Shown: one piece after another, positions 17,944-62,305 of the stretch
How positions within the stretch are numbered: position 1 is the stretch's first letter
Layout of the letters: the number at the start of each line of letters is the position of its first letter
Assembly: GCF_011440375.1 (NCBI RefSeq)
Contig: NZ_JAAOIR010000002.1
Coordinates: 248,001-312,000, forward strand
DNA: 64,000 nucleotides
From: Halorubellus sp. JP-L1
GTDB lineage: Archaea > Halobacteriota > Halobacteria > Halobacteriales > Natrialbaceae
Reading direction: 5' to 3'
The notes under the pieces: model-generated
The model's input: the letters and a program-made list of their open reading frames with translations, nothing else
The model's database searches: none
What the model was told of the DNA's origin: nothing
Made by a program: the position numbers and the translations under genes

Positions 17944-17970
17944 GCACCACGAGAACGCGTCGACGCGGAC

Positions 17971-18144
17971 AGGAACCGGCGGCCTGGGGGCCGCCGGATG
18001 CTGGTCAGTCGGTAGTCACGAACCTGCGCCACAGGAGGAACCGGCGGCCTGGGGGCCGCCGGACGCTGGTCAGTCGGTAGTCACGAACCTGCGCCACAGC
18101 AGGAACCGGCGGCCTGGGGGCCGCCGGATGCTGGTCAGTCGGTA
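17971..18144. repeat. 65-bp tandem repeat, each copy carrying a hairpin
   Basis: Copies at 17971-18035 and 18036-18100, plus 44 nt of a third at 18101-18144, with very few differences. Each contains CCGGCGGC-CTGGGG-GCCGCCGG, an 8-bp stem with a 6-nt loop. The third copy includes the stop codon and last codons of the PhoU/TrkA-C gene on the minus strand, so the 3' end of that gene has been duplicated downstream. The hairpins could stop transcription of the two convergent genes. Confidence 0.95.
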
Positions 18145-19433
18145 TTTGCCACGTCGAGTGAATCGTCTCCTGCGAGCGCCGCGATCCGCTCCGACCCGCT
18201 CCGCGTGCCCTTCGCGACGAACACGTCCCCGGCCGCCAGCGTCGTCTCCGGCCCCGGCGACACCTCCCACGCGTCGCCCTCCGCGTCCGCGTGCCGGACG
18301 GCGACGACGCGCATCCCCGTATTCGTCGACACCTCCCGCTCGCCGAGCGACGCCCCGTCAAGCGCACTCCCCGAGGCGACGGTCACGCGCACCACGACCT
18401 CGTCGCTCTCGAACACCGCCTCCGCGACGACCGGATGCGTCCCGAGGCCGCGGAGCACGCCCTCCGCGATCTCGAGCGCCGCGTCGCTGATGACCTCCGT
18501 CGACCCCGCGAGATGCACGAGCCCGCGGAGCGACACCGGATCGTCGACGCGCGCCGCCGCGCGGAGCGTCCACGCCTCGAACCGCGACTCCAGCGCGTCC
18601 ACCTCCGCCTCAAGTTCCGCGACCTCCTCCGCGAGCGCCTCGCTATCGTACAGGACCGCGCCGTACGCGAGGTCGACCGCGACCTCGCTCACGTTCTTCA
18701 TCAGGACGATCGCGTCCACCGCCCGCTCCAGGTCCGCGATCTCGGACTCCGCCTCCGCCGGCGGCTCGTAGGGCTCGCCCGACGCCGCCTCCGACACCGA
18801 CGCCACGCTCTCCTCGAGGCCCCGGAGCACGAGCACGTCGCCCGCGCGCAGGACCGTGTCGCGGTCCGGGTTCAGGAGCCACTCCCCGCGCGCCAGTCCG
18901 GCCGCGTCGTCTCGATTCGGCGCGTCGTCGCGATTCGGCGCGTCGTCCTCGCCTGCGCGACCGCCGCCTCGTCGGATGGCGATGACGCGCACGCCAGTCT
19001 CCGTCTCCAGGTTCACGTCCGCGAGATCCCGGCCCGCGTACGGCGACTCGGTAGTCAGGTCCGCTCGCGCCACCGTCTCGATCGCCTCCGGGAGCACCGA
19101 CCGCAGCGCGTCCGGAAGCCCGATCTCCTCGAGGACGACCTTCGCGATGTCGCCCGCCGCGTCGCTGATCTTCTCCGTCGCCCCGACCACGCCCAGGACG
19201 GGCGCGAGCGCCTCCGCGTCCTCCGGGCTGCGCGCCGCCATCAGGAGACTCATCCGCGCCCGCATCTGGAGGACGTCCATGCGGTCCTCGAGCGCCAGCA
19301 CCTCCTCCGCGACCGCCGGACTCCCGAACAGGACCGCCGAGTACGACAGGTCGATCATGAGCTCGGCGGTGTCCTTCATCTCCGCGAGCACCGCCTTCAC
19401 GCTCACCGGCTCGTACTCGACGCTCCCCGTCAT
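18135..19433 (-). CDS. Duplicated PhoU-TrkA-C protein (potassium channel/transport accessory)
   Basis: A 432-residue soluble protein made of two copies of the same module: a helical PhoU-like domain (about 10-115 and 225-330) followed by a TrkA-C/RCK-C domain (about 125-215 and 335-420). Paired phrases are VLEEIGLP with VLRGLGTHP, and TETGVRVIAIRR with TNTGMRVVAVRH. Such proteins accompany K+ or other ion channels and bind ligands through RCK-C. A short in-frame repeat (DDAPNR twice, 18 bp) lies in the first RCK-C. No channel gene is adjacent. The start follows from MTGSVEYEP and the 65-nt AT-rich region upstream. Confidence 0.85.
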   Translation of the reverse strand: MTGSVEYEPVSVKAVLAEMKDTAELMIDLSYSAVLFGSPAVAEEVLALEDRMDVLQMRARMSLLMAARSPEDAEALAPVLGVVGATEKISDAAGDIAKVVLEEIGLPDALRSVLPEAIETVARADLTTESPYAGRDLADVNLETETGVRVIAIRRGGGRAGEDDAPNRDDAPNRDDAAGLARGEWLLNPDRDTVLRAGDVLVLRGLEESVASVSEAASGEPYEPPAEAESEIADLERAVDAIVLMKNVSEVAVDLAYGAVLYDSEALAEEVAELEAEVDALESRFEAWTLRAAARVDDPVSLRGLVHLAGSTEVISDAALEIAEGVLRGLGTHPVVAEAVFESDEVVVRVTVASGSALDGASLGEREVSTNTGMRVVAVRHADAEGDAWEVSPGPETTLAAGDVFVAKGTRSGSERIAALAGDDSLDVANTD

Positions 19434-43378: not shown

Positions 43379-43392
43379 CCGCCGTCGCTCCC

Positions 43393-43440
43393 CGCAGTCG
43401 CGCTCGTCGTTCGTTCCGCAGTCGCGCTCGTCGTTCGTTC
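43393..43440. repeat. 24-bp direct repeat, two copies
   Basis: Perfect copies at 43393-43416 and 43417-43440, 15 nt after the catalase stop. No reading frame or hairpin is evident. Confidence 0.9.
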
Positions 43441-43567
43441 CGTGTTCGAAAGACGCGGCCGACCGCCCGCCCGACGCCAGCGCGTCCGCGTCTCGACGTG
43501 ACCGTCCGGCCCGGAGCGTGACGGTAGGACGACAAGATTTACGCCGGTTCCGCCGGCAGCGTCGCGC

Positions 43568-44566: not shown

Positions 44567-44617
44567 TCGCCCCGGTATCGCGACGACTCGCCCCCCGGTA
44601 TCGCGACGACTCGCCCC
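44567..44617. repeat. Imperfect 21-23-bp direct repeat, two copies
   Basis: The string CCGGTATCGCGACGACTCGCC occurs twice, flanked by C-runs of different length, in the short gap before the F420 oxidoreductase gene. Confidence 0.8.
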
Positions 44618-44688
44618 CGCTCGCTGACGGGCGTATAGAGACCGGCGTGTTCCAAACGCTTAATCGGCCTCCTGCCTCACGTGAGAGC

Positions 44689-45357
44689 ATGCGAATCGCA
44701 CTACTCGGCGGTACCGGCGACATCGGGCAGGGACTCGCGCTCCGCTGGGCGTACGACACCGACCACGAGGTCCTCATTGGCTCCCGGGACCCGGAGAAGG
44801 CGCGGACGAAGGCCGAGGAGTACGAGACGGAACTCTCGTCGCGCGGCCGGGACTGCACCGTGAATGGCTTCGAGAACGCGATGGCCGCGGACCGCGCGGA
44901 CGTCGTCGTCCTCGCCGTCCCACCGTACCACGTCGGTGACACCGTCGACGCCGTCGCCGACCGCCTCGACGACGACACCGTCCTCGTCTCGCCCGCCGTC
45001 GGCATGAAGGGCGACGAGGACGGCATGCACTATCACCCGCCGAGCGCCGGGAGCGTCACCGCGCTCGCCGCGCGCGCCGCCCCCGACGACGTCAGCGTCA
45101 TCGGCGCGTTCCACAACCTCAGCGCCGACCGCCTCGCGAACCTCGACGTCGAACTCGACCTCGACACCCTCCTCGTCGGCGACGACCCCGACGCAAAGGA
45201 TACCGTCGAGCGACTCGCCGACGCCATCGAAGGCCTCCGCCCGCTCGACGCCGGCCCCATCGCGAACGCCAGCGAAGTCGAATCCATCACGCCACTCGTC
45301 ATCAACATCGCCCGCCACAACGACGGCATGCACGACGTGGGCGTGCGCTTCCAGTAG
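44689..45357 (+). CDS. npdG: NADPH-dependent F420 reductase (F420:NADP oxidoreductase)
   Basis: A 222-residue protein. The Rossmann motif LLGGTGDIGQG binds NADP, with IGSRDPEKA after it (Ser-Arg, NADP-specific). Later motifs are VVVLAVPPYHVGDTV, SPAVGMKGDEDG and VIGAFHNLSA, all matching the F420:NADP oxidoreductase family. It moves hydride between coenzyme F420 and NADP. GCTTAATC lies about 27 nt upstream of the ATG. Its last eight codons and stop are the first copy of a 38-bp repeat array. Confidence 0.93.
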   Translation: MRIALLGGTGDIGQGLALRWAYDTDHEVLIGSRDPEKARTKAEEYETELSSRGRDCTVNGFENAMAADRADVVVLAVPPYHVGDTVDAVADRLDDDTVLVSPAVGMKGDEDGMHYHPPSAGSVTALAARAAPDDVSVIGAFHNLSADRLANLDVELDLDTLLVGDDPDAKDTVERLADAIEGLRPLDAGPIANASEVESITPLVINIARHNDGMHDVGVRFQ

Positions 45358-45520
45358 CAGTCGGTTCGCACGACGTGGGCGTGCGCTTCCAGTAGCAGTC
45401 GGTTCGCACGACGTGGGCGTGCGCTTCCAGTAGCAGTCGGTTCGCACGACGTGGGCGTACGCTTCCAGTAGCAGTCGGTTCGCACGACGTGGGCGTGCGC
45501 TTCCAGTAGCAGTCAGTTCG
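45331..45520. repeat. 38-bp tandem repeat, five copies, seeded by the npdG 3' end
   Basis: Copies start at 45331, 45369, 45407, 45445 and 45483, five in all with only two single-base changes. The first copy contains codons HDVGVRFQ and the stop of npdG. Copies lie directly head-to-tail with no spacers, which rules out CRISPR. The unit repeats the gene's terminal codons and stop in the 3' UTR. Confidence 0.96.
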
Positions 45521-45612
45521 AAAACGAGAGTTCTCGCGTACGAGACGGATGCGTTCTCGCGAAGCAGTCGCTCGTCGGTCGAGCGAGAGCGATTCGAGAA
45601 GGCTCGACTCCG

Positions 45613-45882
45613 TCAGGCGCCGGCCTGTTCGAGCGCGTCCTCCAGGTCCTCGCGCTGGGTGACGCCGACGAAGCGCTCGACGATGCCGTCGTCGTTCTCG
45701 ACGACGAGCGTCGGCAGCGACCGAACCTGGTACTCGTTGGCGACGTCCTGCTCCTCGTCGACGTTCACCTTCTCCACCTGGAACCGGCCCTCCCAGTCCT
45801 CCTCGAGCTCGTCGAGGATCGGGTCCTGGGTCTTGCAGGGGCCACACCAGTCCGCGTAGAAGTCCTTGAGCGTAACCGTCAT
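45613..45882 (-). CDS. trxA: Thioredoxin
   Basis: An 89-residue protein, MTVTLKDFYADWCGPCK, with the active site WCGPC (C13/C16) and the cis-proline in VRSLPTLVV. It is shorter than usual thioredoxins (about 105) because the N-terminal strand is reduced. It is a cytoplasmic disulfide reductase and could recycle the ArsC enzyme. The ATG at 45882 is preferred to an upstream start at 45936, which would add 18 unconserved residues. It converges on npdG across the repeat array. Confidence 0.93.
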   Translation of the reverse strand: MTVTLKDFYADWCGPCKTQDPILDELEEDWEGRFQVEKVNVDEEQDVANEYQVRSLPTLVVENDDGIVERFVGVTQREDLEDALEQAGA

Positions 45883-62217: not shown

Positions 62218-62305
62218 GCCGTCGGTCACGAGCGATGATGCCGTCGGTCGCGAGCGATGATGCCGTCGGTCGCGAGCGATGATGCCGTCGGTCGCGAGCG
62301 GTAGT
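62218..62305. repeat. 22-bp tandem repeat, four copies
   Basis: Copies start at 62218, 62240, 62262 and 62284; the first and last differ by one to three bases. It lies in the 190-bp gap between the convergent SUI1 and rhodanese genes. Its GCCGTCGGTCG core also occurs in the 21-bp repeat within the rhodanese gene. Confidence 0.93.

What the first reader, a model, noticed from the sequence alone, without database searches (positions are those of the whole stretch)
45331..45520. Five-copy 38-bp array made from the end of npdG
The repeat unit contains the last eight codons and stop codon of npdG, then 3' UTR sequence, five times head-to-tail. Any frameshift or readthrough meets repeated stop codons, and the 3' UTR carries repeated copies of the gene's tail. 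The near identity of copies suggests recent expansion. It separates two convergent genes.
Basis: seen in the sequence. Interest (0 to 1): 0.6.

Follow-up and report, generated by a model that had tools for sequence, protein, structure and literature searches.

The report
Gene-tail minisatellite in a salt-loving archaeon
The last 28 bases of one gene plus 10 bases beyond it are copied five times in a row in this salt-loving archaeon; it is a young, probably harmless DNA stutter of a known kind, but the genus has dozens of similar stutters that sit across gene ends far more often than across gene starts.

Summary
In detail: a 38-bp unit repeated five times (window 45330-45519, one extra base at 45520; two substitutions in 190 bp), spanning the last eight codons and stop of npdG and running into the gap before convergent trxA. 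The unit occurs nowhere else in 125 family genomes; the only held congener, Halorubellus salinus, has a single tail copy and no array. It is a recent, lineage-specific tandem duplication (minisatellite). The proposed roles fail where I could test them: no RNA structure, no T-stretch, period-mod-3 at chance among such arrays, no significant convergent bias, and a candidate trxA terminator already precedes the array.

Following it outward: in 1.82 Mb of Halorubellus (two species) I found 179 near-identical arrays, about three times the density in other haloarchaea sampled. 35 span a stop codon and 2 a start codon; random placement gives 4.4 and 3.6. Stop-spanning arrays are about 3 times denser than in intergenic gaps and favour 30-38 bp units. 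19 of 20 that could be checked are absent at the sister orthologue.

Best reading: ordinary slippage or unequal-exchange duplications, tolerated across stops because the first copy keeps the gene intact. The residual excess at gene ends and the unit-length preference are unexplained.

The parts
44689..45357 (+). npdG, NADPH-dependent F420 reductase; supplies the tail that is repeated
   Evidence: TIGR01915 equivalog 266 bits over cut-off 149.8; PF03807
45330..45367 (+). copy 1 of the 38-bp unit: last 28 bases of npdG (third base of a codon, eight codons, stop TAG) plus 10 bases downstream; the functional gene tail
   Evidence: sequence; tail homologous to single-copy tails in relatives
45368..45443 (+). 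copies 2 and 3, identical to copy 1, non-coding
45444..45481 (+). copy 4, one substitution (G>A, unit position 16)
45482..45519 (+). copy 5, one substitution (G>A, unit position 34); 45520 is one further matching base
45522..45545 (-). hairpin-plus-T site that could terminate trxA transcripts before they enter the array
   Evidence: consensus scan: 1 found, 0.4 expected in shuffles; weak
45613..45882 (-). thioredoxin gene (trxA), convergent with npdG
   Evidence: PF00085 E=2e-21; neighbour conserved in many haloarchaea

Best explanation
This is a young minisatellite. One duplication copied 38 bp across the npdG stop codon. The array then grew to five copies by replication slippage or unequal exchange between copies. 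It has no function of its own. It persists because a tandem duplication across a stop codon leaves the gene intact: the first copy still supplies the true C-terminus and stop, and copies 2-5 are 3'-untranslated DNA. It is one of many such arrays in Halorubellus, a lineage that gains short tandem arrays readily. Shown: the copies, absence in the sister species, uniqueness of the unit, and the genome-wide class. Inferred: the mutational mechanism and the lack of function.
For: Array real and unique. The congener has the tail once. Sampling 1.82 Mb of two Halorubellus species gave 179 near-identical arrays, 35 across stops and 2 across starts, against 4.4 and 3.6 expected by random single-unit placement. 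19 of 20 stop-spanning arrays whose orthologue lay in the sampled sister sequence are absent there, so they arise independently and recently. Genic arrays have periods in multiples of three while stop-spanning ones do not, as expected if only disruption of coding is selected against. No RNA structure, Rfam match or T-stretch in the array.
Against: Tolerance alone does not fully account for the pattern. Stop-spanning arrays are about 3 times denser than arrays inside convergent gaps (1.09 against 0.37 per kb of opportunity, p=0.003) and inside tandem gaps (0.75 against 0.21, p=0.0001). They prefer units of 30-38 bp (20 of 35 against 8 of 64 intergenic; hold-out 4 of 9 against 2 of 23, p=0.04). 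Only 1 bp of homology flanks this array, so the first duplication was not slippage between longer pre-existing repeats. No strain-level or read data were available.
Confidence: 0.8

Rival explanations
1. Gene ends in Halorubellus are mutational hot spots. A process at transcript ends (RNA polymerase pausing or termination stalling the replication fork, or R-loops) causes template switching over a length close to an elongation-complex footprint, producing 30-38-bp tail duplications.
For: 35 stop-spanning against 2 start-spanning arrays; 3-fold excess over intergenic gaps, including convergent gaps; unit-length preference of 30-38 bp, weakly repeated in hold-out sequence.
Against: Unit-length band chosen after seeing the first 26 arrays; overlap with the coding end is spread from 1 to 38 nt, not fixed; 7 of the 35 overlap the stop by 5 nt or less and may be intergenic arrays; no transcript-end data. 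The footprint argument is from general knowledge only.
Confidence: 0.15
2. The array is selected as a 3'-UTR device: repeated stops against frameshift and readthrough, or a buffer against convergent transcription.
For: It lies between convergent genes and holds stops in all three frames.
Against: Period mod 3 at chance across the class (12 of 35); convergent bias not significant (p=0.11); in-frame readthrough is not stopped for 37 codons; no structure; absent at the sister orthologue.
Confidence: 0.03
3. Assembly artefact: fewer copies in reality, expanded by misassembly.
For: No reads available; tandem repeats are a known source of assembly error.
Against: Copies 4 and 5 each carry a private substitution that anchors them; the whole array (191 bp) is short; the contig is 1.03 Mb; similar arrays are common in two independently sequenced Halorubellus genomes. 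Copy number could still be off by one.
Confidence: 0.02

Closest known systems
Prokaryotic minisatellites / VNTR loci
   Same: Head-to-tail near-identical copies of 38 bp, lineage-specific, in a non-essential stretch
   Different: Copy-number variation between strains could not be tested; the unit includes a functional gene tail and stop codon
Tandem repeat regions of archaeal Borg elements (PMC9879509)
   Same: Young, independently arising, near-perfect arrays in an archaeal setting; [quoted passage not shown] partial repeats often flank arrays (compare)
   Different: Borg arrays are A-rich, on extrachromosomal elements, and almost absent from the host; these are GC-rich and on large contigs of a haloarchaeal genome. 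The Borg passages read here report no stop-versus-start count
Repeat-mediated indels of Haloquadratum walsbyi (PMC3119063)
   Different: Those are mainly deletions between separated repeats, not tandem expansions; only 1 bp of homology flanks this array

Membership tests
Minisatellite / VNTR | Contiguous head-to-tail copies of a unit of roughly 10-100 bp | tested here: met
   38 bp x 5.0, 98%
Minisatellite / VNTR | Locus-specific unit, not a dispersed element | tested here: met
   Only at this locus in own genome and in none of 124 other family genomes
Minisatellite / VNTR | Copy number varies between strains | not testable with these tools
   One genome per species held; sister species has one tail copy
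CRISPR array | Repeats separated by unique spacers | tested here: not met
   Copies directly abut at exactly 38 bp
Integrase attachment-site duplication | Gene-tail copies flank an inserted element | tested here: not met
   No DNA between copies
Known structured RNA | Match to an Rfam family or unusually stable fold | tested here: not met
   No Rfam match up to E=1; z=+0.79
Haloarchaeal intrinsic terminator | T-stretch at the transcript end (PMC7237163) | tested here: not met
   Longest T run in the array is 2 on + and 1 on -

The most novel reading that the evidence does not exclude
Halorubellus has a gene-end-directed duplication process. Stop codons, but not start codons, repeatedly acquire 30-38-bp tail arrays, independently in each species, at about 2% of genes, through a mechanism coupled to transcription ends.
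Probability: 0.17. Interest if true: 0.65.

Novelty: new member of a known kind. Interest (0 to 1): 0.35.

Why it matters
Alone, the npdG array is ordinary. As a class, stop-spanning arrays offer a natural record of where short tandem duplications arise and which survive. The strong stop-over-start contrast shows how gene anatomy filters duplications, and the remaining excess at gene ends makes a testable prediction about transcript ends as mutational hot spots in archaea.

Tried and rejected
Functional RNA or terminator: no Rfam match, fold no better than shuffles, no T-stretch. CRISPR or integration-site duplication: no spacers or element between copies. Dispersed element: unit unique. Stops in all frames as a selected feature: period mod 3 at chance. 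Convergent-gene buffering: no significant enrichment. Strand bias of stop-spanning arrays: suggestive in one contig (13 + against 3 -), not repeated elsewhere. Ku end-joining or reverse transcriptase as a lineage-specific cause: neither Ku nor RVT_1 found in 25 genomes, Halorubellus included. Literature searches found no report of stop-spanning arrays in haloarchaea in the held library; subscription papers are not covered.

Full report
Observation. The array is real. Tandem Repeats Finder gives window 45330-45520, period 38, 5.0 copies, 98% matches, score 368; the best score in 40 first-order resamplings of the whole window is 76. Copies begin at 45330, 45368, 45406, 45444 and 45482. Copies 1-3 are identical; copies 4 and 5 have one private G>A each. 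Copy 1 contains the last eight codons and the TAG of npdG; npdG is a confident NADPH-dependent F420 reductase and the convergent neighbour is a thioredoxin.

Origin. The unit is found only here, five times, in own genome and in none of 124 other genomes of the family, allowing three mismatches. The only other genome held for the genus, whose contig matches Halorubellus salinus GX3 in length and position, carries the homologous npdG tail once, followed by unrelated sequence and trxA. Among 103 haloarchaeal npdG loci (some are duplicate records) the stop is spanned by an array in this genome and in one other, Halomicrococcus gelatinilyticus (L042), where a different 26-bp unit (x2.5) spans the npdG stop. 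That is an independent event of the same kind.

A class, not a singleton. I sampled 1.264 Mb of the window's genome and 0.560 Mb of its congener, called genes with a codon-usage model (which reproduces npdG, trxA and neighbours) and classified non-overlapping arrays (period 15-150, at least 90% matches, at least 1.8 copies, score at least 60). Of 179 arrays, 78 lie inside genes, 64 between genes, 35 span a stop and 2 span a start; single-unit random placement gives 145.8, 25.2, 4.4 and 3.6. The counts change little with a laxer gene-calling threshold. Density is 9.8 arrays per 100 kb against about 3.0 in other haloarchaea sampled. The share of stop-spanning arrays is also higher than elsewhere (35 stop to 64 intergenic against 2 to 22; p=0.012), though gene calls in two of the control genomes look incomplete (72% coding).

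Independence and age. For 20 stop-spanning arrays the orthologous gene end lay in the sampled sister sequence; 19 show no array there and one shows a degenerate 27-bp pattern. Orthologues generally end at the same residue or within a few residues, which supports the view that the first copy is the genuine gene tail.

What constrains them. Arrays inside genes have periods that are multiples of three; stop-spanning arrays do not (12 of 35, chance level). This fits simple selection against disrupting proteins. A duplication across a stop leaves copy 1 as the intact tail; one across a start places a second start region between promoter and gene. So the stop-over-start contrast follows from tolerance (inference).

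What tolerance does not explain. Per position of opportunity, stop-spanning arrays are about three times denser than arrays lying wholly in convergent gaps (p=0.003) or tandem gaps (p=0.0001), while divergent (promoter-side) gaps carry arrays about as densely as other gaps. Stop-spanning arrays prefer units of 30-38 bp: 20 of 35 against 8 of 64 intergenic. I chose that band after seeing the first 26, so the fair test is the sequence added later: 4 of 9 against 2 of 23, p=0.04. Seven stop-spanning arrays overlap the stop by 5 nt or less and could be intergenic arrays touching it. The excess is therefore suggestive, not established.

Function. I find no sign of one for the npdG array. It has no T run above 2, while termination in Haloferax intergenic regions uses a T-stretch (PMC7237163). 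Its RNA folds no better than shuffles. A hairpin-plus-T candidate for trxA lies between trxA and the array, so trxA transcripts may stop before reaching it (inference from a consensus match). In-frame readthrough of the npdG stop would run 37 codons before the stop in copy 4, ending again in HDVGVRFQ.

Mechanism. Only 1 bp of homology flanks the npdG array. Across the stop-spanning class the leftover partial copy ranges from 0 to 44 bp, recalling the partial repeats that flank Borg arrays. The first duplication at npdG was therefore probably a template switch with minimal homology, followed by slippage or unequal exchange among copies (inference). No Ku or reverse transcriptase was found in Halorubellus.

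Verdict. A confirmed, young minisatellite of a known kind, most likely neutral. The wider pattern, many independent gene-tail arrays in one archaeal genus, resembles Borg tandem repeats whose first unit lies in gene ends (PMC9879509) and deserves a proper genome-wide test.

Noticed in passing
own-genome G000:C2 near 336964, 782174 and 799990; array unit at G000:C2:38586-38747: A recurrent terminator-like element (GCATACGGCGACCGCCAGGTCGCCGTTTC and variants): 22 hairpins with 7-9-bp stems followed by TTTC in 1.82 Mb of Halorubellus, 21 intergenic, against 2 for an AAAC control. Several also sit inside tandem arrays.
   Followed up: partly
window 17970-18144: 65-bp unit x2.7 spanning the end of the gene at 18135-19433 (-); the unit contains a hairpin. 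The sister orthologue has one such element and no array.
   Followed up: partly
window 43392-43442, 44570-44618, 62218-62300: Further near-identical short arrays just downstream of genes (24 bp x2.1, 23 bp x2.1, 22 bp x3.8).
   Followed up: partly
L042 3649-3712: Independent 26-bp x2.5 array across the npdG stop in Halomicrococcus gelatinilyticus, the same gene end as in the window.
   Followed up: yes
L027 2263-2435; L008 npdG 3' region: L027 has a 51-bp x3.4 perfect array 94 nt after npdG; L008 has a degenerate second copy of the npdG tail (CTTCACGACGTCGGC) about 50 bp downstream.
   Followed up: no
L237 15820-16065; L219 16925-17116: Longer intergenic arrays in Halomicrococcus: 26 bp x9.5 (99%) and 18 bp x10.7.
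   Followed up: no
window 44689-45882; L001-L104: The convergent npdG-trxA pairing is conserved: trxA lies convergent within about 1.4 kb in 64 of 103 loci examined (some duplicate records).
   Followed up: partly
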